A DNA stretch of 64,000 nt from positions 10,635,601 to 10,699,600 of the forward strand of contig JARUPZ010000009.1 of the NCBI GenBank assembly GCA_031213475.1. Direction: 5' to 3'. The notes under the pieces were generated by a model. The model did no database searches. It was given only the letters and a program-made list of their open reading frames with translations, and was not told where the DNA came from. Source of the stretch: Nereocystis luetkeana (lineage: Eukaryota; Sar; Phaeophyceae; Laminariales; Laminariaceae). Shown piece after piece: positions 2,626 through 58,729 of the stretch. Positions within the stretch are counted from its first letter, which is position 1. Every line of letters starts with the position of its first letter. The translations under genes were made by a program, and so were the position numbers.

Positions 2626-2859
2626 TAGTACCCCCCTCGAAATAGGCGACACGTCATGCGTGTCATGCATGCACGAAATAACGTACCTGGTACACTTCTT
2701 CTTCTTCTTCTTCTTCTTCACTTGCGTCGTACGTTGGATGAAATCATGCAAGAGGACCAAAAACGCGAAACGAAACAAAACATGTCATGATGCTTATACA
2801 CACTCAGAGTAGTACTACTGTGTGGCTTCATTGTTGTCGTTTCGGGAGTCGGGAGTCAG

Positions 2860-3345
2860 CACTTTTACCCCTTGACAGACGCCGTCAAGGAAAATGTCTT
2901 GACAGTCAACTCTGACAGCCAACACCAGGGGACGCTACGAAAAATCCCCGTTCTGCCGGAAACGCCCGGAAATATTGTCGAAAGCAGTGTGTTTTCCTGT
3001 AATTTTGTTTCTTTCGGCCTTTTGATACGTTTTCGAGCCCGATCTACAGAAAAATACAATTAACTTGCAGAATCTCGATATTTATTTGAAAATCAGCACC
3101 ATACAAAACGAGTATTATAACAGCTGCACGTGAAAAAAATAAACAGAGGTTTCCACACACGTCATGAGACCTTTTCTGCCAGGGGGGGGTAGGGGATATA
3201 TGCCTAGAAATAAAGATGGGTTTGCCTTGACAGACAGCCTTGACACTGACATGTTTCTGGACTTCTTTGGCTCTACTACCTAAAAAAATCGAAGATGTCA
3301 GGGGGCATGCCAAGCAAGGCAAAACGTGCGCTGTAGTGAAGAGTG
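2860..3345. repeat. Interspersed repeat H (CCTTGACA-rich), copy 1
   Basis: This stretch holds several CCTTGACA or TTGACAG boxes and, near its right end, a block reading AAAACGTGCGCTG followed by GTGTAGGGCCGAGTG. The same block occurs in reverse complement at about 27060-27105, and the TGCCTTGACATGCC boxes recur at 21095-21180 and 27010-27035. The three places therefore belong to one diverged family. Class unknown. Confidence 0.5.
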
Positions 3346-3599
3346 TAGGGCCGAGTGTGCGCCTCTAAATCTTAGTAGTTTGGTGTTCAGTCAATAATAC
3401 ATGTCGAGGCAAAGTTGCTGTCTGCCAAGGGCTGCTGTCTCCTCGCTCCTGTCATGTTCGCCCCCAACAAAAGGCACAGAAGGACCGCTTGGATTTCGTA
3501 AGACGGATCAAAGGGTGCATGGATGAAAAAAACAAGTTGTTGATGGCTGATGATGATGATGGAGTTGGTCAGGTGGACGATTTGACTACATACAGTACA

Positions 3600-3945
3600 C
3601 GAATAATTGATGAAGGGGTTAACGAATGAAAGTAAGTTTGGATGGATGAGTGAAGGGAGTGGAAATTAATAGGGAAACAGCTGGCAGAGAAGCGTATGTA
3701 TGTATGAGGAATGCTGCTGATTTACGGAAGGATATTCGGTTTGTATTGGAATGGCATCTCACGCTGTATTGTCGGAAGGCAAGCACAATGATAATAACGA
3801 ATGATGAATGGATGAATGGATGCATGTATGTACGGATGAATGAGTAGATCGTTTATGAATGAATGGATGAGCGCATGAAATAATGAATGGCTGAAGGAAT
3901 GAATGCATGCATGAATGAACGAGTGGATTGATGGGTGTTTTAAGC
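3600..3945 (+). repeat. Degenerate (ATGA/ATGG)n simple-sequence tract
   Basis: Imperfect ATGAATGG and ATGGATGA tetranucleotide repeats run through this segment, densest at 3800-3935. It opens several short shadow frames, none of which looks like a protein. A second low-complexity patch built on GTCGGG follows at about 3965-4080. Confidence 0.7.
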
Positions 3946-4129
3946 ATTACTCGTCGCGAGTCGTGACCTCAACCTGTCGGTCGGGCCAGGAAGTGTTCGT
4001 TATCTCGCTAGTCGGGGGTCGCGTCGGGTCGAATCGGGTCAGGAGGACTTCAAACTTTCACAGGTCGGGTCGGGTCGCCCTTTCTTTGCTGACCCGACCC
4101 TACCTGGCCCGCGAGGTTTCACCCCACCC

Positions 4130-6892: not shown

Positions 6893-6895
6893 GAT

Positions 6896-7839: not shown

Positions 7840-9990
7840 AATTATTTTTGGCGACTGCCAATTTAATTGAAATTAATTGTCCACACAATTGATTTCGGCG
7901 ATTGATTGTCTATCGATTGGAATTGCCCAGGCAATTGATTTCGAAGACCATCTATCTGCTGGTTGGGATTGCGTGAGCAATAGGCTTCGAGTGTTGCCTA
8001 GGATTTGGAATTGTCCAGACAAATGGTTGCGGAGACTGCTAATTAATTGGAACCATTCAGCAAATTGATTTCGGGTACTGATCCAATAATTGGAATTGTC
8101 CAGACAAATGATTGCGGAGACTGCTAATTAATTGGAACTGTTCAGCAAATTGATTTCGGGTACTGATCCAATAATTGGAATTGTCCAGACGAATGTTTTC
8201 GGGTGTTGCCCACCAACTGAATGAAGTTGGGGAGACGACTGATTTCGGGAGCTGTCTGTTAATTGGATTTGTCTGAACATTTTATTTCGTCTGCTGCTGC
8301 TTATTAACTGAAATTAATTGTCCGCACAATTGATTTCGGGTGCGGTCAATAAAATGGAATTGTCCGAACGGACTTCGGCGATTGGAAAGTGGTTAGAACT
8401 GTGTCCGCACAATATATTCCAGATGCCGCGCAAGAAACCATGTGCTCGATAAATGTCATGGCCGTGTACCTACAGTAGTTATTGTAGTGTGATAGACACT
8501 CCCCATTGAATTGATACTACTCGTAATATGGAACAAGAAAGGACCTTGCGGGAGAGTGCGTAGAGAGGAAAGTTCCCGATCCTGTTTTAGAGGCAACACT
8601 AGCATGGTGGTACTGTTGTGTACTACTGTCCAAATCAACTGCAGTTCTACAACTAGCTGCCAGCTTTCAAATAACAGAACCCTCTTAAACTCGATAGTCA
8701 TGACAATTAATTCCGATTGGTAGATCGCTTCCGAAACCAATTGTCCGGGCAATTCCAATTAATGGACGGTCTCTCAAAGTAGTTGCCCCGACAAGTAAGT
8801 CCCATTCATGTAAATCTCCCGAAATCGAATACTCAAGCAATTCCAATTGATAAGCAGCCTGTGAAATCATTTGCCAGCACAATTTCAATCGATAGGCAGT
8901 CTCCCAGCTCATTTGTCTGGGCAATTCCAATTAATTATTGGAAAGCACCAAACATCAATTAATTGTTCCGGCAATTCCATTTAATGGGCAGGCTCTGAAA
9001 TCAATTGTCAGGCCAACTTCAATTGATAGAGAGTCTCCCAAATTATTTGTCCGGACAATTCCAATCGTAAGACAGTACTCGATATCGATTGTCCGAATAC
9101 ATCTAATTAATACCAGGTCGACAATATCCAAGATCAACTGTCTAAACAATTTCAACTGCTAAGCAGTCTATGACATCACTTACTTGCCCGGACAATTTCA
9201 ATTATTAGACTATTTCGTGACTCTGCTGTAGGGGCAATAGCTATTGAGTGGTCTATTGCCCAAGGCATATTATTAAGCAGAAAAGGGTGGGACACCTCAG
9301 CTTTAGCTTTGTATTTTATGTCCGCACGTAGAAGGTATCGATACCGCCTAGCCCATGTGCTCATATGTAAATAATAATAATAAAAAGTATCACGAAACAA
9401 AACAATCCGTATGCACTGACATTTCGAAATGTACCGGCAGTAGACTTGAGAGACTGCCCACGAACGGCGTTGTCTGAAGTAGTTTTGGAGATTTATTTGT
9501 ATTATATTAGTCGAAATTGTCGGGATAATTATTTTTGTGTATCGTCTATGAATTGGAATTGCGCGGCCAATTGATGTACCTGGTAGAAGGCAGTCTGCTA
9601 ATTGAAATTGTCCGGACAAATGATTTTGGAGACTGTGTATGAATTGGAATTGTCGGGCTAATTGGTCTGGGAGACTGTCTAATAATAATTGGAGTCGTCG
9701 GGACAAATAATGTTGGCGGCAGTCTATTAATTGAGATTGTCTGGACAAATATTTCGGCGGCCCGACTATGAACTGGAATTGTCGGGGCAATTGATCCGGG
9801 AGACAGTCTGTCAATTGGAATTGACCGGACAATTTATTTAGGAGAAAGTCCATTAATTGGAATTGTCCGGACCATTGATTACGGAGACTGCCTACAGAGT
9901 GAAATTGTCTGGACAATAGGGCCAGGTAGGGGTCACTTGATAGAAATTGTCTGGGTAATAGAGCTCGACGCCTTTCACTTGACTGGAAGT
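7840..9990. repeat. Self-complementary minisatellite (AATTGTCCGGACAATT type), orientation reverses twice
   Basis: Degenerate units of about 55-70 bp contain AATTGGAATTGTCCGGACAATTG-like cores joined by TTTCGGGAGACTGTCTATT-like linkers. Units read in one sense at 7850-8440 and 9480-9990 and in the complementary sense at 8720-9220, where the linker reads GGCAGTCTCC and the core CAATTCCAATTAAT. The spacers 8440-8700 and 9220-9480 lack units. The core is close to its own reverse complement, so each unit can fold back and the three blocks can pair with each other. No protein or RNA gene recognised. Confidence 0.8.
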
Positions 9991-11596: not shown

Positions 11597-11597
11597 C

Positions 11598-11685: not shown

Positions 11686-11699
11686 TTAAACTTAACCCT

Positions 11700-13817: not shown

Positions 13818-13929
13818 TGGTCGCTCGCAGGAGGTGCCCTTTCTTTTCTCTCTCTCTCTCCCCCCCCCCCCCCCCCCCGTTCTTGTTGTGTCTTCACTTC
13901 TTCGTATATACTACCAGGTACCAGAGTAG

Positions 13930-14535: not shown

Positions 14536-14539
14536 TTAA

Positions 14540-14996: not shown

Positions 14997-15000
14997 TTAA

Positions 15001-17475: not shown

Positions 17476-18512
17476 TAAACAACAAACAAACGGAGAATTT
17501 TGCACACGTCGGAGAGTAGATACAGCGGGCGGCCGCAGTTAAGAAACTTAGGGTTGACCAAAGTAGGCTAAGCTTGGCGAAAGAGAACAAGGAAATCTGG
17601 GTAAAGAAACACAGCTCAACAGAGTGGGATGCACTCGAAATCTTTGACTACAATTAGAGTGAGATCAACATCGGAAACAGAGTAAGACGTTGGTCCTGTG
17701 GACACAAAACTGTCGTTTCTTGAAACCGGACGCCCACTGTTGTGCTGTATACATGTCGGGGGCAGACTATGTATACTCCTGGTATCGGTGGTACACATAC
17801 ATACTTCGTACTTGTATGTACAAGATGTGCTCGATCTATAATAGTATAGGTCGTACTTGCCGGGTGGGGTCTGCATAACACATCTCTTGCATGGTGGGAT
17901 CCGTATGGCACGGCTGTTATTATACCTGTTCCGATAGGTCGGGGGTGTACAAGTCATAAGGTCTAGGGTCAGGACGAGGGGATGCGACACAGACACGAGG
18001 CTATTCGTGATGCAGTCGAAGGATCATCGTTTTTAGCCTAACCGCATTCGATTCGGATACGACAAGATTACAACACATACCTACGACACGCAAATACTAA
18101 TTAATGTAGAACCACACGGCCAACCTCAAGTCTGGCTGCGACCCAACCGAGTCGAGGCGTGTGCGCTCGCGCGTGCCCCGGAGAGGCAGGGCGCGCTTCT
18201 GACGCTGAGGAGAAGGTTTCCCAGAGATACCCTGGTATGTATAAAATAGAGGGTAAACTGATTGATTTGCGCACCAGGTCAAGAGCGATCACCAATGCAA
18301 CACGTAGGACTGCCGAAAAGGAGGGCAACCCACAAAATTGGGAGGGGCCGTAAACGACGCGACCCCTCCCGATACGAAACACGCATGTATGTCGTCGTAA
18401 CTCCTGAAACGGCCCAAAGCCGTAACATATCATACAACGGCAAACACACTGGAAATATTTTGTAGGATCCACAACAACAACGAACGGTAGCATACGAAGT
18501 ATGTATTGTACA
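17476..18512. other. No gene recognised
   Basis: Contains no exon-like or repeat-like structure that I can support, apart from a micro-insertion motif at 18228-18237. Confidence 0.35.
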
Positions 18513-20230: not shown

Positions 20231-20259
20231 TGTTATGTACCAGGTACGACCGTACGAAC

Positions 20260-21814: not shown

Positions 21815-22985
21815 CGGTTTCTCTATTTTATAGAATGTGTATGACGTGCCTGTCGTATGTGCGTGTTCTTCACATTAAACCGTTCTTTCTACCCGTCGAC
21901 ATCCAGCCCAACCAGTGTCCGTGCCGATTCTTCAATCCTAGAAGAGATACAAGTTCTGTGGTCACAAAGCTACGCCACAGAGATACTACGTTGCCACGTA
22001 CCTGGTACCAGGTATGCAGTAAGCACAGCAGTGGGCAATGCAATGCCATGTCATCGTACATACGACAGGCACGGCATATACATTCTATGAAATAGAGAAA
22101 CGAAAGGAAACAATCAAAGAGAAAACAAAAAACAAAAAAGACAAATCGAAAGAGAAGGAGAAAAAAATGAAAACAAAAAAATGGAAGAAACAATCTGTCG
22201 TGCCCCCCCCCCGCAGGCGAGGTGGCCAACACTTGAAAAAGAACGAGCTCGAAAAAAAAAAAGAAAAAAATAACAAAAACACCACTACTTGTAAACAGAG
22301 TAAGACAAAGAACCAAGGGAAAAAACAACAAAGGGAAAATAACAGGCAGACCAAAGCCCAAAGCACCCTCCAGGTGGCGGCAGCAGTTTGTGGTACGAGT
22401 AGTATAGCCAGGTTCTCCCTACTAATCAGCCTGGTACCTTGCTACCCAGACTGCCGTCTCCGCCCTGCCGTCGTCAACTATGCCCAACCCCTTGGCGTCA
22501 GACAATACGAAACGAGCAGAGCAGGTTCGTCATCCAACCACGCCACACGACTCCTTCAGTACGGCTTATCAATCAGAAAAGGAAGATAAATAAATAAAAT
22601 GAAAATCACGGTGAATCAGCGCAAGAGAGAAAACACACAAAACAAAAAAAGAGAAGACAAGGGAAGATCACGTTCGAACCAGCTGCACCAGTTGGTGGCA
22701 CTAGCAGTATGGTCATGTTCTACTTCCTGAGTCGGCCTGGTGCCTTGCTACCCTGTCTGCCATCTCCTTCCTACTTTCGTCTACCGCAGTTTCCCTTCTA
22801 CTCCTCCTGTTCCCCCCCCTCTCCGCTTTCCCTTGGTCAGGCTTTCTGCCACTTTTCCTGTTTCCCCCTCCGCCCCCATTCCCTTGGACACCATCCACGG
22901 CGGATGCGCGGCGCTTGCCTACTCATCTCAGCCTCAGCCTCATGCCACCTCACCATGAACCGTTCGGCTACTTCAAGGATATCTA
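21815..22985 (-). mobile_element. LINE-L, 3' 1.17 kb, minus strand
   Basis: Reverse complement of 24785-25912: the C-terminal codons and 3' untranslated region of LINE-L, ending (in its own sense) at about 21835. The 22200-22270 C-run and GCAGGCGAGGTGGCCAAC block pairs with 25535-25570. At 21999-22014 it carries an extra 14 bases (CCTGGTACCAGGTA in its own sense) that are absent from the three sister copies. Together with 23400-25912 it forms a large inverted pair. Confidence 0.85.
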
Positions 22986-27105: not shown

Positions 27106-28715
27106 TGCTCGACATGTCTCCTGACCTATTTGCCCAGCTGTACCGGCGCACTAGGCCATGTTGGGTCCGTGCCTCACGACGCCTTGCGGTGTCAATATTC
27201 AATAGGACACTCCCTGTTTGTATCGTCCTCCCAAATCACCAACCACGCTCGTGCCGTCGCTTCAACCGCCAGCCACTACTGTAGTTACCGAAACGTTACA
27301 TCGTTGAGGTCTCCAGACTCCAGAGGGTAACCGGTTTTTCCACCCGTTGGCATCCAGCCCCCCAGCAGCACGAGCACAGACAGTAGTATTAATGAGTCAC
27401 TTGCAGGAAGCGTACAGAGTGGTATATATAGTTGAAGGGGGATGCAGTTTCTTTTTTTTAGTTCGTGTTTTGGGCGGCGCCCCCTCGGCCAATAGGGTGG
27501 CTTCGCCAGCCGACGTCATTTGGCGGGAGGCAGTAGTTTTCGATGGGCAATACCCCAACCTATTGACAGATCAAAAGATATGTTCAGTAGGCTGTTGTCT
27601 AGGGTGTGATTTGTACAGTCGGGAAGTCCTGCCGACTGAGTGCTGTAGCAAGTTATCAATACGTTTTGGGCGCGTTTCCCCTCTGAAGCTCCAAACCGCG
27701 GGGCTGCCAGTTGGCGGACCAACAGCCGCCAGCTAGTTACTAGTTGGCTTAAGTAATATAAGGTTGCGGCGATGCCAACTATCCAACTATTTTTCACGTA
27801 TGGGTTTCCTTGCTTGTAGGAAGGCTTGTTTGATACGAGGTACGTATTTCCCGGCATCTCCAAGTAGCACTAAGTTCTAGCGAACTACTACGCTGCTACC
27901 AGGTAGCACACAGAGAGGTCTTCTGCAACTCATGGCGCTTCGACCCATCGCCATCGACTACGAATTTATCTCCCGTTAGTGTGTTCAGCGTCCAGCGGAT
28001 GATGAGCACCTCTGGCTTGGGTGTTTGAGCGATGCTAGCCCTGAGCTGCGTATCTCTATCCAGCGAAGCCCATAAGGCCAAGCAATGAAACCTCGTACAG
28101 CACAGATTCGCTTCGTGTGTTGGTTGGTATGTAATATAACTCATCCAATGCCGCGGAGGGTATGGCATGGTACTGGCTAGCTCGAAATATGAACCGGGCT
28201 TGACTCGCTTGAATCGCCGGCGATGAACAATCTATTGTCTGTGCTCCTGTCCTGTCGTAGGCCCCGGTCTGTTTGCTGTTTGTTTTTTTTTTGTTTTTTT
28301 TTTAGTTTACTGGTCTGCTACTGCGCGCCGCCCGAGAAATTTACTGATACGACAAAACGTAACACCAACACCAACACCAGAGAGTGAGAACCCAGCGAAC
28401 GCGGACGGCATGCCCGGAGACATTTCTGGCGCATTATCTACAAAGTCTGACAAACAAGGCAGGAGCTTAAAACGTTTACTTTTCTTGATCAAAACCAGAG
28501 ATAAGCTGGCGGATTTACCATACTTTTTGAGTGTAAAACGAAGCAAAATAGCGTATTTTGCGCCCCCGGCGGGGGCGCCTCCAGCGCCCCCCCCCCCTGG
28601 GGATTTTTCTCCTTTTTTCGCTTGCTGCGCTCGCCTGACTTTATTCCGCTAGTTGGCTAACTTCGCCGGGCTGAAGTCAGTTTAGCGCGACCCAACTATT
28701 TATAGAAAGTATATA
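27106..28715. other. No gene recognised
   Basis: About 1.6 kb without a convincing exon or known element. A short G/C-rich hairpin (GCGCCCCCGGCGGGGGCGCC) lies at 28559-28578, followed by a run of 12 C. T-rich runs occur at 27449-27458 and 28282-28303. Confidence 0.4.
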
Positions 28716-29285: not shown

Positions 29286-29396
29286 GTTACGGGGGACCAT
29301 ATCAAATAGGGACCTACGGTAGACACAAAAACCTACCAGGTACGTATTGGGCTATTTTTACGAACAATATTTGGTCCTATTTACTATGATTCCCCG
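29286..29396. mobile_element. Family C miniature element with micro-insertion
   Basis: TTACGGGGGACCATATCAAA on the left and GATTCCCCGGAATAA on the right. At 29334-29342 it reads CCTACCAGGTACGTATT where the motif CCAGGTA has been added at a TA. Confidence 0.85.
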
Positions 29397-37943: not shown

Positions 37944-40900
37944 CCCCCCCCCTTCCCCCCCTCCCTACCCACCCCTTTCGTACGGTACTATTACGGGGGA
38001 CCATAGTAAATATGACCAAACATTGTGAGTAAAAATAGGTAACTACATAGGTTTTCGTGTAGACCATAGGTCCTATTAACTATGCCCCCCCCATACCACT
38101 GCACCTGTACCGACATTTTTCGCGCGCAGAGAACGAAGCACGGCAGCCCATTTTGGTCTCCTTTTTTTTTTTCCTACTCACTGTTGGAGATGATGAGAGC
38201 TTATTTTGATATTCATGTCAAGAGTCCAAACGATGCTTTTATACATGCTTCGAAGTATGAGCACACCGGCCGTGAATATATTGTTATTTTGATGTTCATC
38301 TCAGAGTACAAATGTTGCTTATATTGGCGGCCTAGAGTGCAGGAAGACTCTGACCCAGAATATGAGCTCATCTTGGTATTCATATCAGAGTCCAAATGTT
38401 GATTATGTTGGCGGTCAGAGTATAGGAACAGCCTGACCGGAAATATCGGCTCTCTCTGATATCCATCTCAGAGTTCAAATGTTGCTTGTATTTGCGGTCA
38501 GAATGTAGAATGTAGGAACACCCTGACCGGGAATATAAGCTCCGTTTGATATTCATGTCGGAGTCCAAGTGGTGCTTGTACTCTGACCGGGAATATAAGC
38601 TCTCTTTGATATTTACATCAGAGTTCAACTATTGCTTATAGTAGCGGTCAGAGTACAGTCTGACCGGGAATATAAGCTCCGTTTGATATTCATATCAGCT
38701 CCAAATGGTTCTTATATTAATGGCAAGAGCGGTACAAGCGGTACCCCCCCCGGTGTCCATCGGAGGCTCAAGTGTCTTATTTTTTCGTCCGACCTTGATG
38801 TCACTCTGTTGTATAGGATCAAGAGTTGGCCTCCACCGTGGAGCCGCGTTTCTCAACGCTTTTAGAGCCGCAGTCCCGTTTTCGGGACAAACTACTTGAA
38901 ATTTGGCTGGTTTGTCCCCCAAACGGGACCGGTCCCAAAAGGGTTACCCCAATTTTTTCATTGCTCTTGCCGATCTGAGCCTGTTCTGCTCTTAACCCTT
39001 TCTCGAACCGCAGTCCCGTCATGGGGACAAACTACTTGAAATTGGAGTGGTTTGCCCCCAAAACGGGACTGCGGCTCTGCAAGGTTCAAGTGAGCGTTTG
39101 TTATCTGCGAGCGCAACTGCCACTGTAAAGGAACTGCCCGTCCCTCGTTTTTTGCTTTTCCCCCAAGACCTACGTGTACCGCACAAACTAAGGGCTCGTT
39201 TTTTTGTTTTTTTGTTCTCATGTTCGGGTGATATTAAACCCCTTTAGAAACGCAGTCCCGTTTTGGGGTCAAACTACTTGAAATTTGAGCAGTTTTCCCC
39301 CAGATTGAGACTGCGGTTCTAAATGGGTGAAGCCTTCCTGATACGTCGGAGTGACGGTTTCAGCAACGGCAGCAACTGCGTGATTGGCGGGGGGCGGGGG
39401 GGGGGGGGGGGGGGGGGGGTACTCATTGGTTGCTTGCCTTAGTCATTTGACCAATTGACCGCGCATCCCTTTCGAGGCGGAGCAGGGGGAGGGAGGGTGT
39501 GCGTACTCGATCTCATGCATGGCTTTAGTCGTACGACCATAGACCCTCGCATCCCAGCAATGCCGGGACGGAGCATGTCGGATTTCCACTGACTGATTTT
39601 TTGGCTGCCTTGGTCATTTGACCATGAATCACGCATCCCTTTCGAAACGGAGCGGGGGGGGGGGAGCATTCTCATTTGTGGCTTGGCCATTGACCACGCA
39701 TCCCCTTCGAAACGGAGGGTGCCGGGGGGGGGGTGGGTGTAATCATTATCATGTGTGGCCGTGGATGTATGACCATAGACCCTCGAACCCCCCCCCCCGG
39801 GGAAGGGGGATAACAAGTGGGTCCCCAAGGTACAATGCAGGGAGTTGTATGGCACGGGGCGTACCATGCTCCCACACGTCCTCCCGGGCCCTTTTTTCCT
39901 CTGCTCGTAGAAAACAGATAGCGCCAAGGTTGCCATTGGTTTTTCGTTCGCTATCGTGCCAAAAAGGAGCTCCGACGAAGTTCAAGCGTACATTCATTTT
40001 TCTTACAACCCGTTTTTGGGCGCAACTATCGAGCGTGCTATAGCCGTGCTCGAGCGAGGACCCTCAGGGAAGTTAGCCGGTGCGCCTATTTCGGGGGACC
40101 ATACCAGGTACCTGGTACCTGGTAGTTAATAGGACCTATGGTATACATAAAAACCTAGATATTTAACCATTTTTACTAGCAACATTTGGTCCTATTAACT
40201 ATGGTCCCCCGTAATAAGTATGTAGCCTGCGCCAGGGCAGGGGGAGGCGGGTATGTTATTACTGGGGACCATGGTAAACAGGACCAAATATTGTTAGTAA
40301 AAATAGCGAAATATAGAGGTTTTTGTGTGTACCGTAGGTCCTATTAACTATGGCCCCCCGTAATAGTTCGAGTCTGTTTTTTTTCTATAAATCATTTTTT
40401 GCCTTCGCAGGCCGTGACTCTTGACTCCTCCACCCACTCACCCTCGTCTTTACTGCTCGGGACGACTCTTGCCTCAAGTTAGTTTGGGATCAATGCTATT
40501 TACGGGGGACCACAGTTAATAGGACCTATGGTATACATAAAAACCTATATATTTAACATTTTCGACTAACAATATCTGGTGCTATTAACTATGGTCCCCC
40601 GGAATAACGTACAAGCTGTTCTTAAGGACTCATAAAAAGACAAGACACTCAGGTGCCTACATCCTCGGAGTAAACCACACTTTAATGACGGCCACAGGCA
40701 GGCCCGACCATGGTGGAAGAAAAAAAAAAAAACTCATAAGAAGACGTGCGCCAAAATTCACCGTCTGACACGAAAAAACAAGCGCGGACTCCGGCCGGGG
40801 AACACGTTTTCGTTTTTTCGCTCGATTTCCAGCCTGTGCCTTGTTTTTTTTGGGACGAGGTGGTGGGTCGTGGTAAAGGCTCATACATAGCCTCTGGGGT

Positions 40901-41620: not shown

Positions 41621-44600
41621 AGTGGGCAGCCACGGCCACGTGTGGCAGGCCTACATGCGCGGCCACGTGTGGCCGGTCTACATGCGCGGCCGCGTGCGGC
41701 AGGTCTACATACGCGTAGGTCTCTGCTGTATTGCTGTGGCTAGATTCCTTTTTTCTGACCCTGAGAGTGATAATCCCGCAACAACACACCTCTCTCTCTC
41801 TGACGCTGTGCGCGATCGTGCGATCGGACAGTATCCTGCATATTTATAAAATTAGAAATAACAGCTGTGAGATCGATGATTTCGTCGTTTTATCTAGTCT
41901 AACGGCGGACACCCCCCCAAAAAAAAACACACACACACACACAAACACACACCCACTCCCGAATATTATAAACACCCTATTTTGTCGTTGTTACACTACA
42001 GTGCAGTTTGTTCCCTCATCAAGTGCAAGAAATCGAGATAGCGAGTGACCCAGGCTTGATTTCTTGTTAGGGGCGGGATGCATTCCTCTCTAATTTCCGC
42101 ACAAGGGTACGGTCTACCCGCTCCCCGAAGATTTTCATTCGCTCCGACGGAAATCTGAGGCTTCTGATTCTCGTGGAGGCTTTTTATTTTTTATTTTCAC
42201 GCCTTTATCTCAGAGGGCCAGTACGTACGTACACAAGAACAGTGCCTCGTTTTCGTTTGCACAACAGAGCCGGGACACCTCCCCCACTACCCCCCTCCTC
42301 CCGGCGTAATGCGGGCGTGATGGAACTCCTTGTGGAGACTCCGAACAACGTAGCCCACCACTTTTACGGGGCAAGGAGATCAGAAAGACTGCTACTATGT
42401 ATCATGCTAATATTACCGGGGGCCATAGTGAGTAGGGCCAAATTTTGCTATTACGGGGGGCCATAGTTAACAGGACCTATGGTACACATACAAACCTTTA
42501 TGTTTAACCGTTTTTACTGACAATAGTTGGTCCTGTTCACTATGGCCCCGCGTATCAGTGAAAAAATGGCGAAATGTATACCCTGGTAGTTTTTTGTTGT
42601 GTCTACCGTAGGTCCTATTTAATGTGGTCCCCCGCAATTGGTGTATCGAACTGAGAAGGTTTGTCGACACCTGATACGATTTGTGTTTTGTGCAGCTGCT
42701 CCTCAACGTGTTTTTTTACGCCAGCATTGTGCAAGGGGGGGGGGGGCGGGGGAGGGGCGGGGGAGGGGCGGGGGGGTGGGAACTCATTCGTTGGTTGCCT
42801 CAGTCGTTTGACCATTGACCACGCACCCCTTTCGGGGCGAGGCGGGAGGAGGGGGGGGAAGGGGGGGGGGGGAGGGGGGGGGGGTCCCGGCCTTCGGCCT
42901 CCTGCTGTCTTCTGACCATTTGGAGTATGACTCGATTTCGATTTTGTTTTTTCTTCTCGCGTCGTTGTTTGTTTGTGTGTGTGTGCTTTTTTTTGTTTTC
43001 CTTGTCAGGCGTGCATGCGATACGAGGGCATGTTCGACTGGATTGCTTTAGGAGACGACGACACCACCTTCATGTACAACAGAGCCAAGACATTTCTGAA
43101 GCACATCGATCACACTCAGGTCAGAGGGGGTTCTCTTCTCGCCGTAAAATGGTGGCAGCACAGCAGTCTATCTATATGTACGAAAGTATACGCATCCAGC
43201 AGCTACCGCCGTAACGCGGAAACACGTTTGAAACCGGGTCGGACGGACCAGTTGTTACGGGGGGACCATAATAAATAGGACCTAGGGTACTCACAAAAAC
43301 CTTAATATTTCCGTATTTTTACCAAGAATATTTGGTCCTATTTACTATGCCCCCCCCTATGAATAGTAGCACCTATTTCCCGATGGACCCCTGTGCTTGA
43401 ACGCTAGTTTTGTTTTCTCGATTTTAGTATAACGTAGAGTAGATAGCCCAAGGTTTCGCCCTCGCGGGGGGCTCCTCGAAAAATAACGCCTACCGGTAAA
43501 TGACGTAGCCTTTTTTTCTTTGCATCCAATGTGTCGCATTGGATATTTGTATCAACGGCAAACCCGTTTCATTGTGTATCGGGCTCTTTAGATGGCAGTG
43601 TTTTTTTTTTGTCGTACGTACCCGTAGCATATATCATAGTATTGGAGCATCACAGAGGAACGTAGTACCTGGTATATATAGTAATCAGGAACAGATATAC
43701 TTAGTAAAAAAACTGCAATGTAAATGATGTCTCCTGATTACTATTACGTGGGACCATAGTTAACAGGACCAAATACTGCTAGTAAAAATGGTTAAATATA
43801 CGTATACCTGGTAGGTTTTATCTATATACCATAGGTCCTATTAACTATGATCCCCCGTAGTATGACCCCCCACGTTAGGTGGAACTGTAGGTGCTTGCCC
43901 CAAGGAGCACCGTAGCGCGCGTGCCCTGGTGTACGAGGGATGAACTGCACAGCGTAGATATTCCGGGGGGCCATAGTTAATAGGACCAAATATTGCTGGT
44001 AAAAATAGAGAAATATATAGGGTTTTGTGTGTACCGTAGGTCCTATTTAATAGGGTCCCCCGTGATAGTCGTGTTGCCCCGAGTGAGGACCTGCATGTCA
44101 CTGTCTCTTTGCCTTCATCTACAACGGAGCCAGGGGTTTTCCTGACGGCCTAGATACCGCGCACCCAGGGCTGGAGGGGGCCCCGCGCCGGCCTGACGCT
44201 CGCTCGTCCCAGTCGGGCCGAGTGTGGTCTGTGCTCGGGGCAAGCCAGGAGCTAGCTGAGGTTCAGCGCACCTAGAAAGTTGGTTGAATATTTTGCACGC
44301 TTAAAGTGGGCCAGATTCGATTTATCCTGCCGCCGCGCTTTACGTACGTCGAGCAAGAGTCTTTACGATGCTGTTGTTGCACGCGTCGGGCAGAGTGTCT
44401 GCTCGGAGACTCTCCTGCCGCCGCGCCGGCCAGCGGTGCATCCAGCAGAATACTTTCGAAACGCTGCGCGCATAAAAAGGCAGACCCGTGGCACCTCGCG
44501 CAGCCTTGGTGTTTCGACCGCTCGATGATTATTGCCCACCCTATCCAGTCACCCTCTCCTCACTCAGTCATGCACGCTCCCTCTGTTCCTGCTCTGTTCG

Positions 44601-47600
44601 TTTGTTGTGCATGCAGCCTGTGGCGTTCGGCAGAGTCGATGGTCTGAACGATAACTCGGCCCCATGCGAGAAGAGGGGATGCTTCTCCCCACAGGTGAAC
44701 CCACTCCTTCCTACACACAGAGACCTATACCATGGATCAGATGTATCGGATGCAACAGATATATCGGATCGATCAGATATATCAGCCAGAAATATCAGAT
44801 AGCTCATATATCAGATCGATCAGATATATCGGCCAGAAATATCAGATAGCTCATATATCAGATCGATCAGATATATCGGCCAAACATATCAGATAGCTCA
44901 TATATCAGATCGATCAGATATATCAGCCAGAAATATCAGATAGCTCCTATATCAGATATATATATATATATATATGTATATATATTATATATATCCGATA
45001 CATCAGACAGATCAGATAGATCATATGCATCAGATGTATTAGGCAGATTAGACAGATCATATGTATCAGACAGACCAGATGTGTCACAGAGAAAAGACAG
45101 ATCATATATAGTACTCATACCAGATATTCATATATATATCAGAGATATCGGACATATCAGATATATCAGATATATCAGACATATCGGATATATCATACTT
45201 ACAGGTATATCAGACATGTCGGATATATCAGATAGATTAGATATATCTGATGTATATACCTGGTATCAGATATACCAGACTTACAGGTATACCAGGTATC
45301 AGGTACGTCGGATATGTCCGATAGGTCATATCCCTACAGTAGTTCACGGTGACGCATGCCCCAATACTACATTAGGACTTGTATCGTTTTTTTTTGCCTT
45401 CCGAGGCAATATTTCTTAATCGACAGAGCCCCTCATCGTACGAACTATGTGTCCCTAGCGTGTTGCACAGTTTTTTTCGCTGGCACTCAGGCCATGCATG
45501 GTGCTCATCCGGTTACAGCCCTTTTTGGACTGCAGTCCCGTATTGGAGACGAGTGAGTTCTAATTTGACTGGTTCGTCCCCAAAACGAGACTGCCGCCCT
45601 AAAAGGGTCAGTAGAGGTTTCTGGCAAACATTTTATCAAAAGTCAGTTTTGGGTGGGGTGTGGAGGTCGTCAGGTGAGGAGCCTCAGACAATTAGGCGCC
45701 GCCCTTACAAGGCAAAAAGTACGCGTCTAATCTACAGCAGTAGGTCGTACTATATTCGGGGCAGATATTATGCGTATCGTTCACAGACCTATGCCAATGG
45801 AAACACGAAGTCAAAAAGTTTTCTTTCGAGAAGATTGCTCTCAAAGAACAGCCGAAAATATCCTCCTTACCGCCGCTGTGGGAAAACATTTTTTTTTTTT
45901 CTCGATTTTTTTTTCTTTTTAACGGCTGCAGGCGGCGCACTTTGTTTTTTCTCGTTGCAAGTTGTCAACACGCTGATAAAGACCAGCTCGTGCGACGATA
46001 GACTCTCCATCTCGACATCGACTCAGCCCACAGCCAACCAGCTCGGTGACGGGCAAGGCCAACGAGTATAGATAACGGCCTCTAAGATACCAGGTGGATC
46101 CATGGTCTAGGGGGCGAGAGCTTGCCGGCGGCGTCCTACGGTAACCTCCCAAACCTGAGAAAAAACTCTATTTTTGGCCATTCGAGACGGATCGAGAATT
46201 TTTTGTCATTTGTTTCGTTCACACCAGCGCCCTATTGTTGTTTTTTTGTCATACGCCTGGAAGCAGCGCCCGCCACATGCCACCGATCATGTGTGTAAAC
46301 ACGGTGACCCTGGGGTGGGTTGGAACCCCTAACGAGCGCACCCCGTTCAGAATTCATGACGCAGTCGTTGGTTTCGTCGATCGATGTCTGTCGGGGACTC
46401 GGAATCTCGCCGCTTCGAACGAAACATCCGCCTGAGTTTTTCTGACGCCGATCTTGGTCCAACATCGGCCCCATAACTGTTTTTTCCGTGTTTTTCCAAA
46501 GTTTGGAACTGTCCGCTTTAAAAAACCTACCCATAGCAATCTGTACCTGGGATTTTCCGACGGGTATGTTTGGAATTCAGACTTTTTAAAGGCAAATATG
46601 CGTTTCCATTGGCATAGAGGTCTTAGCCCGCAAGATTCATATATATCACGAGAAGGATTTGGAAGCCATTTTTCTCCGAAACATTGTGGGGGGGGAGGGT
46701 TGTACTCGATAGCAGGGATGCACTCGATCCCATGCAAGGCCGTAGTCGTGTGACCATAGACCCTCGCATCCCTACAATGCCGGGACGGAGCTTACCCCCC
46801 CCCCTGCGGGGTAGGGGCAGCTAAGAATAATGATAATAAGGAGAAGTGAGCCTCGGGCGTCACCGCCTACAGCCTCAGAAGTCGAGGGCGATGATACCGA
46901 CCGGCACATCCATTATCCACGATAGGGCGAGGGTACCGACCGGCACGTAACTGCCCTTTTCTAGAGACCGAACGATCGCGATCCTTGTGCGATTTCAATG
47001 ATCCTTGCGGTACCTAGACAACGTGCTGTTGGGCTCTTTGCGCAGCATCGCACTGTGGCTACTAGGGGGTCTTTGTGATCCACAACAGGGGTCGTGATGG
47101 GGGTATTGTACAACATGCCCGGCCAGAGGTGGGGGGGGAAATGGGGTCTATCTACCAGGTACGTATCTAATATGAAACGGCTCTTCTTGAGTATCATCGA
47201 ATAGCGGACAGTGTACTCGTAGGAGTTTTTACGATCTGAATCGTGATATGTACGGCGCTTGCGTAACATTCGCATGGTGGAAACCGTGGGTTTTATCTAT
47301 ACACCACTCTGTCCCTACAGATAAGAAAGCGTGTTTATAGTAAAATTCAATCAAAACGGTCCTCATGTAAAGAAAGGAACGGAATAGTGTGTGGTATCAG
47401 ATCAGATCAGATAAAATCAGGCCGGATCGGATCAGATCGGATCAGATTCGATCATATTAGCCCAGACCCACCTTTCACGATCTAGATATTCACCTCTTAC
47501 TTTTTGTGAGAGGGCCGGTAGTACCCCGCGGACGTCGAAGTTCCAAGCTGTTTCATTTCAATAATGGGACGGGGGGAGATAAATAGAGAGAAAGAGAGAG

Positions 47601-50600
47601 AGAGTGCATACGCCGAGCGACGCATTTATATGTATTGAAATTTCGACGAGATCGTTCCAGTAAGACCTTGATGACATTTTTCCAACAAGATCCCGACGAT
47701 TTTTTTTCGAATCAGACCTCGACAAGATTTTTTCAACAAGATCGGTTCAACAAGATCTTGACGGGATCGTTCCAATTAAGTCTCGACGATATTTGTATTA
47801 TAAGATCTCGACGGGATCTTTCCAACGTTATATCGACGAGATATTTCCAATATGATCTCGACGATATCGTTTCAACAAGATCTCGACGAGATATTTCCAA
47901 TAATACGAGAACTTCTCAACAACATCTCTACGAGATATTTCCAGTAAAATCTCGACGAGATCTTTCCAATAAAATCTCGACGAGATCTTTCCAATAAAAT
48001 CTCGACGAGATCTTCCAATGAGATCTCGACGAGATCTTTCCAGAATCCACGTTTTTCCGTTATGTACACGTACGTATGTATATGATACGCCTCGATTTTT
48101 GGAGGAAAATGGGTCCGAAATTAGTCCTTGCGTGGTACCACACCTCCGAGGAAAGCCTTGTATCTCTGGGCGTAAATGTTAGAACCGATTGGTTTCATAT
48201 TAGTATATAGAATGCCCTTGTATTTCCGGTCACAGTGGTATACGGCGCGTTGTGCACCGACTGTGTATACTGCTGTAGTGTATACTTGCCGCACCCCACC
48301 CCATATTGCTCCGTTACACCACACCCCCATCGCACGCCATATATTTTCCTGGAACTACCTACTTTAGGACTGCATTGCCGTTGTGGGGGACAAAACACTT
48401 GATAATTACAGTCAGAGTTGGGTCTCTGTTCACGGTGGGTACCTCTGTTTAAGAGCCCCCCGTGACGAGCGGAAACGCGCGCTCTTTGTGCAGTGCGTAT
48501 TGCACTAATCCGTTGTGGGCAAATATGTATCTACTTCGTGTAACGTTTATTAACAGTATAGGTGGAACGAGCCGTCTCACCGCTCGTAACTCCAAAATGC
48601 TCTTATCTTGTGCGCTCTTAACTCCAGTACGTATTGCTCTATTCGGCAGTCGGCGATACATAAATACATACTTCGAAGTAGATATACAGCTTTTCGTATA
48701 GGTGGGACAAGCCGTGTTACCGCTCGTAATTCAAGGGTGCTCTTATATCGGGTGCTCTCAAATCGGGGCTCTCAACTACCGTGCGTGCTGCTCTTTTATA
48801 TATATACCAGGTATTTATAGATAAGTGTCAGTATAGGTGGGACAAGCCTCAACTCACCGCTGTTGACTCCAGAATGATCTTGTCTTGGGGTGGTCTTAAA
48901 CAGGGGCACCCACCGCAGCGCAGTAGTAGAGGTGCTCGCTGAGTAACCGGGATGCTGGCCCGACCTAGAGCTGCTCTTGTTTGAGTTTTCCACGCCTATT
49001 TCACCCTTTTACGACTACCGCCGAGTCCCGTTTTGGGCACGCACTGCTTAGAATCTGAGTGGTTTTGTACCCTAAACGGGACAAAGTATGTAGAATTTGA
49101 CCGTTTTCCCCCCAAAACGGGACTGCAGTTTTGCTCTAAAAGGGATAGTAAGGACAACCCCCTCCCCCCCCCCCCGCCTCTTCCGAATTTCCTATTTACC
49201 CATGCTGTCAGTTTCTTGTGGGGGGCTGTCTCCTACGAGAGGAGTGCTAGTTGGTTTTGTTCGCTGACCCCCTTAACGTTCGCCACCCTATCCATGCTTG
49301 CCCCCCCCCCCCGCCCCCCGACCATCACCCCCATTGCGCGCCATTTTTTTCACGTTTGTGTATATATGATGTCCTCTACAGGACAAGCGTAACGCCTCCC
49401 ACGTTCTAGCCTCCACGGGGTGCTGCGACGACTTCACGCGACCCTGCGAAGTCCCCGTGTACCCCTCAGGACGCGAAACGGATCACGTTTTCAGCTACAA
49501 GGACTACGGTCCGGGCGGCCTGTTCTGGCCATACGGTGGCTCCGGCACCTTCGTCAGCGCCGGGCTGGCGATGGCCGTGGTGGGGGGGGAGAGGGGGTGG
49601 AGTAACTGCGCCAGCATTTTTGGCGTCATGAATACAGACGTGCAGGTAATTCGCGATACGTAAATGTTGTACTGACTCCTAAATGAGGGGCAATTGATTG
49701 TTGTTTTTCACGCCCCCTTGATGGAAGAAATTACGCATCTTTTTTTTGCAAGGCTGAGCGTGCTGAGCGCCAACCATTCCATCGGCCGCGTAAACTACCG
49801 CGGCAGGGGTGCGATCCCGCGGGAACAGGTGCTGGTGCCTTACTTTTATGAGCTGACGTAGTCAGGGAGTTGCTCAATGCCTCGCCCCAAAAACGCGGCA
49901 CTGGAAGAAGTTTTAGTCGAGCAACCCGACCCAACATTTCTATGCGCTGTTGTGGCACCGTGATACAGCAGTGGTCGCTCTATAGCACAGGTTGAGCAGA
50001 ACCGGCTCCCCGCTACGTAGGGTGCCGGTGAAGTAGCTCGGCGCAGATGATATTTAGCCAGCGCGGCAATGTGCGGAGGAGTGGCGCCGGTCGCTGCTGT
50101 AGTGCCGATATTGTTGGCTGACGCATATACCGGCGCTATGGTTGCGCCAGCACAGTTATTTATTTCAAGTCATGCTTCGGGCGAGGTACGAGTTGAGCTT
50201 CCAAGTCGTGTGAGGATCTTGAAAAAACAAGGCACCATCGCCACCGTGACGTTGCTCTCTGTCCTACGTTGTTTTCGCTACCTGTGCTGACGGCTCTTAT
50301 CTCCTGAGCCGCATCCGTCAGGCTCGCCCCCGTGAACATGGGTGTGCGTGTCTCCGTCCACCCACCTCGCGGCCCTTCCCTTCGCTCTTGGCGCAAGCAA
50401 TCCCTGACTGGTCGGTGAAAACCCGATGTGCTCCGTCCAGGCATCGTAGAAAAATGCGAGGGTCTATGGCCATACGACTACGGCCATGCACGATAGGGAG
50501 TACCCCTCCCCCCCCCCCCCCCCCCCTCCCCCCTCCCTGGCTACGTATAACCGTGACCATTGCCACCTTTCGTTCATCGTGCGCAAAGTTCGCGCAGTGT

Positions 50601-53425: not shown

Positions 53426-53489
53426 GAACGGTCTTTATATTCACAAACATCGATTGCTCATCGGGTTGAGCCTACACATTTTATCGAAA

Positions 53490-54735: not shown

Positions 54736-54739
54736 AGTC

Positions 54740-57340
54740 TGATGGGTACCAGCGGCGAGGGATACACGTAGAAACTACGATAGAGTACATATATTCGGGT
54801 AGCACTACTGCTGTTTATAGCAGTGACCATGCATAACGTATCAGGAAACAGTAGTCACGGCAGGTAGCCACCATCGCATACTCGCGATAAGGCAGCACCA
54901 GAAAAAAAGAAGGCCACAAATCTCTCCGTCCTGACCCTCGATTTGTTTTTTGTTCCCGCGCACGCCTTGACGATTGTTTGCGGCCGGCCTTCGCCTCAGG
55001 TGTAACTCTCGTTTTTTTGCGGCCGTTCTCCGCCTCAGGCGTCACTCTCGATTTTTTTTGTTTTCGGCCCCGCACATCTCGTCTGTGTTTTGTGGTGCGG
55101 CCGTTTTTTTCTTGCTGTGCGGTACTCCTCGAGGAAAAAAATGGGGGGGGTCGGCTGTATTCATTTAGACTACCATGGCAATACGTATGCGTACGACTCT
55201 AATAATCAGCCCAACCTAAGTGACAGCAGTATTTTCGTGGTCACATGTCACATGTAACTGCTGTTTGTTGAAGTATACCTCGCTGCTGGTATCGAAACAG
55301 GGAGTACTTTTGAATATCGTTGCGGGAGGAACGCTTTCCGTAGATGGTTCTAAGTTTGAAGTTGTACGCAGGAACCGATAACCTACCATGCCCCGAGCAC
55401 TGAGTAATAGCTGCCTGGAGCAAAGGCGCCTCAACTTGAAAATTACACAGAAAAGCCGTATCCCCGTCTACAATACCATCAGTAGTCTATACACTACCTG
55501 GTACGCAGTTTCACACGATGCTCAAAAAGATGAGAAGATGGTATACCAGGGTAAATTATACGACGAGTTGCATTACCGTGCGTACACGACTAAGAATATG
55601 AATATTAACGATAGTACATGTAATGTGGAAAAAGATAGGAAACCATACTCCTACTACTACTGCTCTACTCTGTACCTGCAGTCTTTTTTTTATTTTTTCT
55701 ACCCCGAACAGGGTGAGCTCTTCATACACGGTTAAGCATACGGGGGGGGTGGCTCGCAGTATGTATGCTTTTGACAACATCAATAAAGGGCGTTTATGGG
55801 CTATATATAATACTACACACTCCCGTAAAACTGTACCAGGTACCTGGTAGGCCGTATGGCAAAATCCTTAGGGATCATTTCGTACATCTCTCTTCCCATC
55901 TTTTCGAGTCATGATAACGCGTTGAAAAGCGACATATATATCAGGATGTACCACACACACCGTATGCACACGAGTACCAGGTATCTGGGATTCATACGGG
56001 GCATACTACGGTGATGAAGCTGGGTAGAAATTACGAGTTTTAGTCGAAGGCCACATATCATACGTGGAGGATGTATCCACAGTATATACAGTATTCATAC
56101 CATTATCAATATAACCGTTCATGGGACTGAAGGTCGCACGGCAAAAGCTCTCTAGATCCTTGGGTCCATCGCTCCTCTTGCTTTCACAAGCGTGGAGACG
56201 TTTAACTTTGGCCCCACACATCCCTACACACGTACGGGATGAGTGTCCCCTACTACCGGAGCAAAGTAATGTTGTTGGGAAGCCGTTCAGCTGTGCAGTG
56301 TACGGCATGTTACTATTCGGGGGTAGATGAAAGCTATGCTGAAACAACTGAGGGCACACAACGAGAGTCATAGCGGGTTGTTATGGTCTCCAAGTACCCG
56401 ATACGCTGGAATTCCACTTGTTTCACCCGTTCGGGTCTTCTCACCCGGTACGTTGGCATTTCACTGGCTTTCCCTGGTCTTTTGACCCGGTACGTGGCCA
56501 TAGGAAACAACCATACTCATTAGCTTTCGCGCCCATAAGTAGTCCGTCAATTATAAGAAAGAAGAACGGACAACCCAGGCGATGGGAATGTTTGCAAAAC
56601 TGTGATATGAGGTGATCGTGCTCTTTGTATAATCCCAAGTTCTATTTTGCATACTACCAGGTATGTTTTAGCTTCCGCGCACATAATTAGTCCGTCAATT
56701 ATAAGAAATAAGAACGGACAACCCAGGCGATGGGAATGTTTGCAAAACTGTGATATGAGGTGATCGTGTTCTTTCTATAATCCCACGTATGTTATGGGAT
56801 ACTCGTTATATGCATATATCCACATGTTTTCGGTGTTGCCTGCCTTGTAGGACGGTGATTCGTGTGATACGCTGTTATGTATTCACGCTGCCGATGGTGC
56901 TTTGCCTGTTGTTTCGTAAGGCTTTGAAGATACTCGTCTGGTCAATGCATGCAGGCATACTCGTTGCTCGTGCTCGTGCTCGTATGCTCGCTCGTTTTTC
57001 ATGATCGCACACACATGCATGTTCGTTAATAAATGTCTGCATGCGATTGACCACATAATGTCTTCAAGACGAAATGCAACCGACAGGTGTCGATACAAGC
57101 CATAGGTGCCGTACGTACTAATACACGCATGCTCTCGTGGACCGTTTGCTCGGGCAAGTGATAACGGAAACTAACAATGTCGAGCCTTACGCTGTTTGGG
57201 CGTACATAACCACCCTTTAGAACGATGAACCCCTGGACAACAACGTGCATTGTCGGCTGGCAAACATGGAACTTTCGAGAAATCCACGTATATTGTGATG
57301 ACTGTGGTGTAGTTTGTGACCACAGGAAAAATCTCTCTCT
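54740..57340. other. Internal LTR-element DNA with no recognised gene; dense micro-insertions
   Basis: AT-rich sequence without protein similarity. Between 55495 and 57806 it carries seven micro-insertion motifs (55495, 55544, 55834, 55841, 55975, 56655, 57797), more than any other part of the window. A 148-bp direct duplication is at 56519-56790. Confidence 0.55.
56519..56790 (+). repeat. 148-bp tandem duplication
   Basis: TTAGCTTTCGCGCCCATAAG to CTCTTTGTATAATCCCA and TTAGCTTCCGCGCACATAAT to TTCTTTCTATAATCCCA are about 95 per cent alike over some 120 bp. The offset is 148 bp, with a micro-insertion motif (56655) in the junction. Confidence 0.85.
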
Positions 57341-57342
57341 AG

Positions 57343-57430
57343 GATCAAATAAAGGGCACGGACACTGGTTGTGCTGGATGTCGACGGGTAGAAAGAATGG
57401 TTTAAGGCGAAGAACACATACACAATACGT
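57343..57430 (+). mobile_element. LINE-L 3'-terminal fragment inside the LTR element
   Basis: GGGCACGGACACTGGTTGTG, GGATGTCGACGGGTAGAAAG and GAACACATACACA: the last 90 bp of LINE-L. Confidence 0.7.
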
Positions 57431-58729
57431 GCAGAGTACGAGTCGAACACATACGGCCGCATTACCTTATTCATCCCGACTGCTGTAAAGTATGTATATT
57501 ATCTTCATTCAGCATACCGAGCTGGTATCACATCACACTGGATACGGCAGGCACGACGCACGCATTCCGTCCAAGAGCAGGGAGAGATAGCAGTGCGACA
57601 CCAACTAATAAATAAAACCTATCAACCTAGTGGCACCGGGCATATTAGTACTGGTAGTTACAAACCACCCGGCACTAGATTATCGACTACCAGGATGTCG
57701 ACACAGCAGTTTGTGTCACAGAATCGGGGATCACACACATAAATAGTTGCAATCCCGTGATCACAGCGCCCGAATACTGGGGGATGCGTGAACAGTTACC
57801 CTGGTACTCGATAGTATCATGCACGAATATTTGAAAACCGTGAAAACAGGCGTTTGTTTTACATTCGTGCTGAAAGGACCTCGGAGCGCTGGCCTCTATC
57901 CGGAGCGATTTGCCTGTAGCAAGGGTGTCTGCTCTTCCAGAGCAAATACATGCATCCTAAGCAGTGGATACGAGATACACAATGCAAATCAAACTGAGGA
58001 GAGAAAACCTGGTAGTTTCCGATAGGAAAACAAAGCCCCTCCCCAGCGCGCATACTCACGCGCCGTCTTAGTCGCTGACGCAGTGAACGGAGAATCAAAC
58101 GAGCTTGACTTTGTTCAAGTATCTGACATGGTTCCCAATGACGATTGGGCATCTTCACCGTTTGAGTACTGCACTGCTGTACATGTACATAAGGTTGACC
58201 CTAATTTTCAAGTGCTTCGTCCCCGCATGGGGAGGGCAGTTCTATATAGGTGAGGCCACATATGCCCACTGCCCAAACTAAAGGCTCCCTTCATTTGCGA
58301 ACGCGATCGTGAAGTGGTTGGGCGTACCACGCACCTGTTGTGTCGTCCGTCTCCAAGCATCGAGCGATCCGCCTGATCGGAAAAGAACGGTTGTAGGAAT
58401 TCTAGATTGCATGACTAATGCTGGAAAACATGATGTAGGCATGGTGTAACCGAGCAGGATACCTTCCTATTTGACTCTCCAAGATTAGTGGCCCAGTGTT
58501 GGAAACACGAAGCGAAAGGTGGGATTGGGATGCCAATAAGCAGTAGGTAGTTTCCGTGCTGGGGGGGTGTTTGTCACCACCTTTCTACAACTACTTTCAC
58601 GAAAACCGTTATACAAGGGTTACGATCTTGAAGTGGTGGTGGATGAATGACGTTTGAGGACTCATGAATTAGTTTTAGAACGAAAGGGTCTCACCAGTGG
58701 ACACTGTTCGGGCTGGGGGGGTGGCGTGA

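What the first reader, a model, noticed from the sequence alone, without database searches (positions are those of the whole stretch)
2684..57806. A dispersed micro-insertion, TA-CCWGG-TA, about 31 copies: probable excision scars of an unseen TA-targeting transposon
I count about 26 copies of TACCAGGTA/TACCTGGTA and 5 of TACCCTGGTA/TACCAGGGTA. Starts: 2684, 9577, 13912, 18228, 20238, 21999, 22006, 27897, 29334, 30594, 31616, 33137, 33973, 40102, 40109, 40116, 41275, 42579, 43666, 43805, 45257, 45290, 47153, 48805, 55495, 55544, 55834, 55841, 55975, 56655, 57797. With equal base use, the two 9-mers together are expected about 0.5 times in 64 kb. In repeat copies with sisters to compare, the unit was added: one TA became TA-CCWGG-TA. 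Tc1/mariner-type excision leaves TA, a few terminal bases, TA. A 5-base overhang CCAGG meeting CCTGG differs only at the centre, which would explain both the A and T forms.
Basis: partly seen in the sequence, partly recalled or inferred. Interest (0 to 1): 0.88.

Follow-up and report, generated by a model that had tools for sequence, protein, structure and literature searches.

The report
Genome peppered with transposon exit scars
A tiny sequence, TA-CCAGG-TA or TA-CCTGG-TA, occurs about 180,000 times in one eukaryotic genome and, where it can be checked, was inserted at a plain TA; the simplest reason is that an unidentified jumping gene leaves this short scar each time it exits.

Summary
The window has 26 TACCWGGTA (shuffles: mean 0.49, max 3) and 5 six-base variants; one listed coordinate is off by 10. 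In the unnamed 465 Mb eukaryotic genome around it the 9-mer occurs 182,395 times (reversed control 1,744), and a four-unit tandem pattern matches 236 times (control 0). Where a repeat copy carrying the unit has a comparable sister, the sister reads plain TA (26 of 27; about ten weak). A and T forms are 1:1. Six-base forms are mostly CCAGGG/CCCTGG (11,422), not CCCAGG/CCTGGG (1,578), as expected if a parent element ends TA-CCAGGG...CCCTGG-TA.

Best explanation: excision footprints of a low-copy TA-targeting cut-and-paste transposon cut five bases inside each end; CCAGG overhangs anneal with one central mismatch, resolved to A or T, as in Sleeping Beauty footprints but with longer arms.

Not shown: the transposon. 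No full-length element in 320 kb held, no DDE_3 hit, mariner search uninformative; five bases exceeds the 2-4 stated for Tc1/mariner. Within arrays, neighbours are alike somewhat too often, so duplication also contributes. Footprints are known; this length, number and tandem growth I did not find in the papers searched.

The parts
2684..2692 (.). scar TACCTGGTA
9577..9585 (.). scar TACCTGGTA in a 42-bp tandem repeat; aligned sister site reads CG, not TA
13912..13920 (.). scar TACCAGGTA, followed by CCAGAGTA, perhaps a degenerate second unit
18228..18237 (.). six-base scar TACCCTGGTA
20238..20246 (.). scar TACCAGGTA
21999..22014 (.). double scar TACCTGGTACCAGGTA; three sister copies (5128-5234, 22990-23092, 25694-25818; 94-96% identical) have no insert; L023:831 has a single scar at the same TA
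27897..27905 (.). scar TACCAGGTA
29334..29342 (.). scar TACCAGGTA inside a family-B MITE
30594..30602 (.). scar TACCTGGTA
31616..31624 (.). scar TACCTGGTA
33137..33145 (.). scar TACCTGGTA
33973..33981 (.). scar TACCTGGTA at the central TA of a family-B MITE; 39 sister alignments (a copy may count more than once)
40102..40124 (.). triple scar TACCAGGTACCTGGTACCTGGTA in the terminal repeat of a family-B MITE; 51 sister alignments (a copy may count more than once)
42579..42588 (.). six-base scar TACCCTGGTA in sequence that aligns with family-B MITE copies
43666..43674 (.). scar TACCTGGTA
43805..43813 (.). scar TACCTGGTA inside a family-B MITE (next to a 4-bp difference)
45257..45265 (.). scar TACCTGGTA beside the ATCAGATAT satellite
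45290..45298 (.). scar TACCAGGTA in the same place
47153..47161 (.). scar TACCAGGTA
48805..48813 (.). scar TACCAGGTA
55495..55503 (.). scar TACCTGGTA
55544..55553 (.). six-base scar TACCAGGGTA
55834..55849 (.). double scar TACCAGGTACCTGGTA
55975..55983 (.). scar TACCAGGTA
56655..56663 (.). scar TACCAGGTA
57797..57806 (.). six-base scar TACCCTGGTA

Best explanation
The units are excision footprints of a low-copy, TA-targeting cut-and-paste DNA transposon whose ends read TA-CCAGGG...CCCTGG-TA. Inferred steps: the element inserts at TA and duplicates it; on leaving, the transposase cuts one strand five bases inside each end, so each chromosome end keeps a 3' overhang CCAGG; the two overhangs anneal as CC/GG pairs around one A-A mismatch, and filling plus mismatch repair gives TA-CCAGG-TA or TA-CCTGG-TA. 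A six-base cut gives CCAGGG or CCCTGG. The scar has two TAs seven bases apart, a spacing the process seems to favour, so scars are hit again and grow into tandem, mixed A/T arrays, with some further growth by duplication. Shown: precise TA to TA-CCWGG-TA insertions, their number, the variant spectrum and the arrays. Inferred: the element, its enzyme and the repair chemistry.
For: Genome-wide excess 182,395 vs 1,744. Empty sister sites are TA in 26 of 27 informative runs of 139, including a double and a triple scar with 96% identical flanks. A:T 93:94 in the 317 kb counted. Six-base forms CCAGGG/CCCTGG 11,422 (5725+5697; control 195+214) vs CCCAGG/CCTGGG 1,578 (798+780; control 177+185). Repeated hits at one place: 71 single, 8 double, 1 triple run in 264 unselected kb with 15,919 TAs and 90 units by my sum, i.e. 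0.6% per TA, yet 9 of 80 runs are multiple; 236 matches of a four-unit pattern genome-wide (overlapping in longer arrays), control 0, with mixed A/T order in the listed part. TA recurs at +6, +13 and +20 from the scar (28%, 16%, 12%; it is also common right beside the scar, +1 23% and +3 22%). Other runs are dense around four-unit arrays: 60 runs, the 15 anchors included, in 15 loci of 3 kb vs 53 in 200 kb, as local hopping would give. A Mos1 mariner end reads CCAGG directly after TA (primer table in PMC2642840, passage); [quoted passage not shown]
Against: No full-length element found: no TACCWGG...CCWGGTA pair with convincing inverted repeats (187 pairs in the window; 801 pairs in all held sequence, the high scores being scar arrays or AT-rich; relaxed search, 16 hits, none convincing), and of 190 sister-supported larger inserts 0 have such ends on both sides and 9 on one side, these being scars or a satellite at the border. 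DDE_3 (PF13358) 0 hits, 30 candidates scored, introns not modelled; mariner PF01359 0 hits but its control was silent. 111 half-sites TACCWGG without the second TA show no recurrent neighbour apart from a satellite, a LINE and a duplicated stretch. Adjacent units in 43 arrays, read by hand from the listed part, are alike 84 times and different 52 times (p about 0.008), so units are not fully independent. Five bases exceeds the 2-4 bp stated for Tc1/mariner. One informative sister reads CG, not TA (window 9577). CCCAGG/CCTGGG also exceed their own control about 4-fold, so some six-base forms arise by other routes.
Confidence: 0.68

Rival explanations
1. Direct micro-insertion: an enzyme inserts a ready 7-bp unit (or trimmed transposon-end fragments) at TA without a long element ever being integrated at that place, for example abortive integration of end fragments.
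For: Scars are very common while full elements were not seen in the held sequence; arrays would follow from repeated addition at one end; adjacent units are alike more often than chance.
Against: I know of no enzyme that does this (recall). The CCAGGG/CCCTGG variants and the CC-W-GG palindrome are what staggered cutting of element ends predicts.
Confidence: 0.15
2. Programmed or developmental elimination: TA-bounded elements are abundant in a germ line and are cut out in the sequenced tissue, leaving the scar each time, somewhat as in ciliates.
For: Very high number; adjacent elements would give tandem scars.
Against: One-mutation neighbours of the scar are in excess (by hand 49 transitions seen, about 19 expected under equal base use), so many scars look old and inherited. 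Scars also occur in DNA of the same or a very close species from another source (L011).
Confidence: 0.07
3. Replication slippage or a minisatellite process with unit TACCWGG.
For: Tandem arrays exist and like neighbours are somewhat enriched (84 of 136).
Against: Most runs are single units (71 of 80) and lie where the sister has only TA, so there is nothing to slip on; 52 of 136 neighbours differ in A/T.
Confidence: 0.03
4. The words are part of a longer dispersed repeat, or a binding site kept by selection.
For: 9 of 49 family-B MITE intervals carry one, several at or near the same central TA.
Against: Flanks of 82 runs share no sequence beyond base preferences; most MITE copies lack the unit and the copies that have it differ in its form; insertions rather than substitutions create it.
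Confidence: 0.02

Closest known systems
Tc1/mariner excision footprints (Sleeping Beauty, Mos1)
   Same: TA target duplicated; a few terminal bases left between two TAs after end joining; A/T-centred footprint as in Sleeping Beauty; a Mos1 end starts CCAGG after TA (passages only, in PMC2642840, PMC2874221, PMC7913693).
   Different: Five (sometimes six) bases instead of 2-4; about 180,000 copies in one genome; tandem scar arrays; parent element not found.
Tc1/mariner families of the brown alga Ectocarpus (PMC12477816, passages)
   Same: A sizeable Mariner-Tc1 complement (17 families, almost 12,000 copies, most non-autonomous) in an alga; a passage warns that introns and low conservation make transposases hard to find by homology.
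   Different: The find counted 0 occurrences of 'footprint' and of 'excision' in its main text. The host of this window is not identified, so kinship is only a guess.
Ciliate TA-bounded internal eliminated sequences (recalled)
   Same: Very large numbers of TA-flanked excisions.
   Different: Those leave a single TA and no extra bases (recalled); here scars look inherited and decaying.

Membership tests
Tc1/mariner-type excision footprint | insertion at TA with TA duplicated on both sides of the residue | tested here: met
   26 of 27 informative runs (of 139) have TA as the empty site; about ten of these alignments are weak
Tc1/mariner-type excision footprint | residue of 2-4 terminal bases | tested here: not met
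   five bases (182,395) and six bases (11,422); 2-4 stated in PMC7913693 (passage)
Tc1/mariner-type excision footprint | residue equals the outermost bases of the element's inverted repeat | tested here: inconclusive
   element not found; six-base variants fit an end CCAGGG
Tc1/mariner transposon | full-length element with inverted repeats between two TAs | tested here: inconclusive
   none convincing in 320 kb held; the rest of the 465 Mb was not read
Tc1/mariner transposon | DDE/D transposase | tested here: inconclusive
   PF13358 0 hits (control rang in 3 of 14 genomes); PF01359 0 hits, control silent; introns and divergence can hide it; PF03184 not searched
Minisatellite | tandem copies as the primary form | tested here: not met
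   71 of 80 runs are single

The most novel reading that the evidence does not exclude
A genome is being enlarged by a 7-bp 'micro-transposition': an enzyme adds TACCWGG units directly at TA sites, or an element of a new superfamily with five-base staggered excision cycles so fast that scars outnumber elements by orders of magnitude, and its own scars are preferred targets so that they grow into arrays.
Probability: 0.25. Interest if true: 0.9.

Novelty: new variant of a known kind. Interest (0 to 1): 0.74.

Why it matters
If these are excision scars, insertion and exit of one transposon is a major source of small insertions in this genome (182,395 x 7 bases, about 1.3 Mb), each a record of one completed jump. 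That gives a rare count of excision events rather than of resident copies, makes target preference and repair outcome measurable in nature (five- vs six-base cuts, A vs T resolution), and offers a dense set of short presence/absence markers. It would also show that a transposon can be nearly invisible in an assembly and still be a leading mutagen.

Tried and rejected
Tried without result: TACCWGGTACCWGGTA in viral contigs (9 hits, no more than I would expect by chance in a collection of that size, a rough estimate); family-B MITE pattern in viral contigs (0); LINE protein in viral contigs (0 confirmed); Rfam on the window at gathering cut-offs (0); relic spliced-leader word (5 vs 3.92 expected); paper searches for the word and for footprints, for the source contigs and for brown-alga transposons. 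Considered and rejected: the L032:1799-6307 pair with ends CCGGGGGG as the parent transposon, because the same sequence occurs alone in other loci and continues past the TA; LINE half-sites 22430/25333 as element ends (ordinary LINE sequence). L011 beyond about 3702 was judged bacterial from the end of the alignment and the look of the sequence, not by a separate search. A 13-bp insert CCAGGATTGTGCT after a TA in L035 (about 1742, minus strand), absent from the sister in L011, could be a longer footprint; it occurs once in the held sequence. Allele test of the three L011 scars against G000:C4:10947983-10951679 (99% identical over L011:15-3702) could not be made: the aligned lengths (3688 vs 3697) do not tell which sites differ. 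The organism was not identified; a LINE and a TIG-domain protein did not name it. Never answered, so not known: TACCWGGTACCAGGGV (meant to catch full elements beside scars), TACCAGGGNTA, and the genome-wide number of double units.
Full report
1. The observation. All 31 units are in the window: 26 TACCWGGTA and 5 six-base forms; one listed start (41275) should be 41265. They make 27 runs, three of them multiple. In 100 shuffles of the window the 9-mer occurs 0.49 times on average and at most 3 times. CCAGG/CCTGG is the commonest five-base word between two TAs in the window (26) and in a 200-kb sample of the same genome (54).

2. Where it lies. No tRNA and no Rfam family at gathering cut-off; a LINE fragment has 277 relatives, of which 119 of the 120 listed come from ENA records, the ten best all on contigs under 6 kb. 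I did not identify the organism. The frequency is not local: TACCWGGTA occurs 182,395 times, the reversed pattern 1,744 times, about 0.39 per kb.

3. It is an insertion. In copies of repeats the unit is extra. Window 21999 has TACCTGGTACCAGGTA where three sister copies (94-96% identical) have no insert; 40102 has three units inside a MITE terminal repeat that is otherwise 96% identical over 28 columns to its best sister. Over the 320 kb held (38 sources, including 15 loci picked for arrays), 139 runs were tested, 27 had an informative sister, 26 of these read TA and one CG. About ten of the 26 rest on weak alignments. Of 49 family-B MITE intervals, 9 carry a scar, several at or near the central TA, so some TAs are preferred.

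4. The variants tell about the source. A and T forms are equal (93:94). Six-base forms are TACCAGGGTA 5,725 on one strand and 5,697 on the other (controls 195, 214), while TACCCAGGTA, which addition of a C would give, has 798 and 780 (controls 177, 185). The second is itself about fourfold over its control, so some six-base forms arise by other routes. In the held sequence the ratio is 14 to 2, and no seven-base form CCAGGGN was seen. This is what an element end CCAGGG, cut at base five and sometimes six, would leave.

5. Arrays. In 264 unselected kb there are 71 single, 8 double and 1 triple runs, 90 units by my sum on 15,919 TAs; chance re-use of a scar's TA would then make about 1% of runs multiple (my estimate), and 9 of 80 are. 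Genome-wide a four-unit pattern matches 236 times (overlapping matches within longer arrays included), control 0. Neighbours in 43 arrays from the listed part of that answer are alike 84 times and different 52 times: too mixed for duplication of one unit to be the rule, but not fully independent. TA recurs at +6, +13 and +20 from the scar (28%, 16%, 12%), and is also common right beside it (+1 23%, +3 22%) (82 runs); so seven-base spacing of TA is favoured, or older units have decayed beside the scar, and AT-rich context plays a part. Regions around four-unit arrays are rich in other scars (60 runs, 15 anchors included, in 45 kb; 53 in 200 kb).

6. Age. One-mutation neighbours of the scar are in excess in the held sequence; by a hand estimate under equal base use, transitions are 49 where about 19 are expected. 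Many scars therefore look inherited and decaying, with intact ones in the majority. As an order-of-magnitude inference, this many scars at a few per cent divergence need well under one new scar per genome per generation, so a low-copy element would suffice.

7. DNA from another source. A scan of genome contigs for the family-B MITE word found two contigs in bacterial MAGs. L011 (JALZWD010000061.1) is 99% identical over bases 15-3702 to G000:C4, so this part is DNA of the same or a very close species; the rest looks bacterial. Its 3.7 kb hold three scars, one of them in a MITE whose aligned sisters have TA. The allelic comparison could not be done.

8. The missing element. No pair of TACCWGG ends with inverted repeats was convincing; of 190 sister-supported larger inserts 0 have such ends on both sides and 9 on one; 111 half-sites showed no recurrent neighbour other than a satellite, a LINE and a duplicated stretch. 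DDE_3 gave no hit; the mariner family search was uninformative. The held 320 kb are about 0.07% of the genome, so an element of up to a few thousand copies could be missed.

9. Comparison with the known. Tc1/mariner elements insert at TA, and end joining leaves a footprint flanked by TA (PMC2874221, passages); the same text prints the Sleeping Beauty footprint as A/T-centred. Footprints of 2-4 bp are stated in PMC7913693 (passage), and a 5' break two or three bases inside the element in PMC2642840 (passage), whose primer table shows a Mos1 end reading TA-CCAGGTG. So this works like a Tc1/mariner footprint with a longer stagger; membership is not shown. I saw no report of CCWGG scars in the listings of searches, which cover only open-licence papers.

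10. Verdict. Mechanism most likely transposon excision (0.68), element still unseen. New variant of a known kind; interest 0.74.

Noticed in passing
window 4628-44069 (18 intervals): Family B: palindromic MITE of about 110 bp with ends TATTACGGGGGACCATAG..., TA-flanked; 49 intervals in the held sequence. 9 of the 49 carry a scar.
   Followed up: partly
L011:2953-3045; window 11589-11690, 14439-14540, 14993-15094, 23627-23728, 38849-38950, 38989-39090, 39231-39332, 45511-45612, 53515-53616: Family C: palindromic MITE; in L011 it reads TTAACCCTTTTAGAAC...GTTCTAAAAGGGTTAA, which suggests TTAA target sites and a piggyBac-like parent (inference).
   Followed up: no
window 22253-25516: Two long inverted copies of repeat sequence (400 nt, 97%) flank a LINE remnant at 23378-24609 that is split by a family-C MITE at 23627-23728.
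   Followed up: no
JALZWD010000061.1 (L011) and JALZUO010000060.1 (L010): Public bacterial MAG contigs that contain DNA of this or a close eukaryote; L011 looks like a chimera whose eukaryotic part ends near base 3702.
   Followed up: partly
L035 about 1742, minus strand: A 13-bp insert CCAGGATTGTGCT directly after a TA that is absent from the sister in L011; could be a longer excision remnant.
   Followed up: partly
window 53072-53427 and 58732-59180: Two tandem arrays: 59-bp unit (6.0 copies, 97%) and a composite 37/64/101-bp unit.
   Followed up: no
window 6570, 37560, 43797: Other short differences between repeat copies at TA (inserts TTGATA, CTAATA, TATA/TACG), perhaps scars of other elements.
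   Followed up: no
L025: A GC-rich tandem satellite containing TACCAGGCCCC; no scars in that 10 kb.
   Followed up: no
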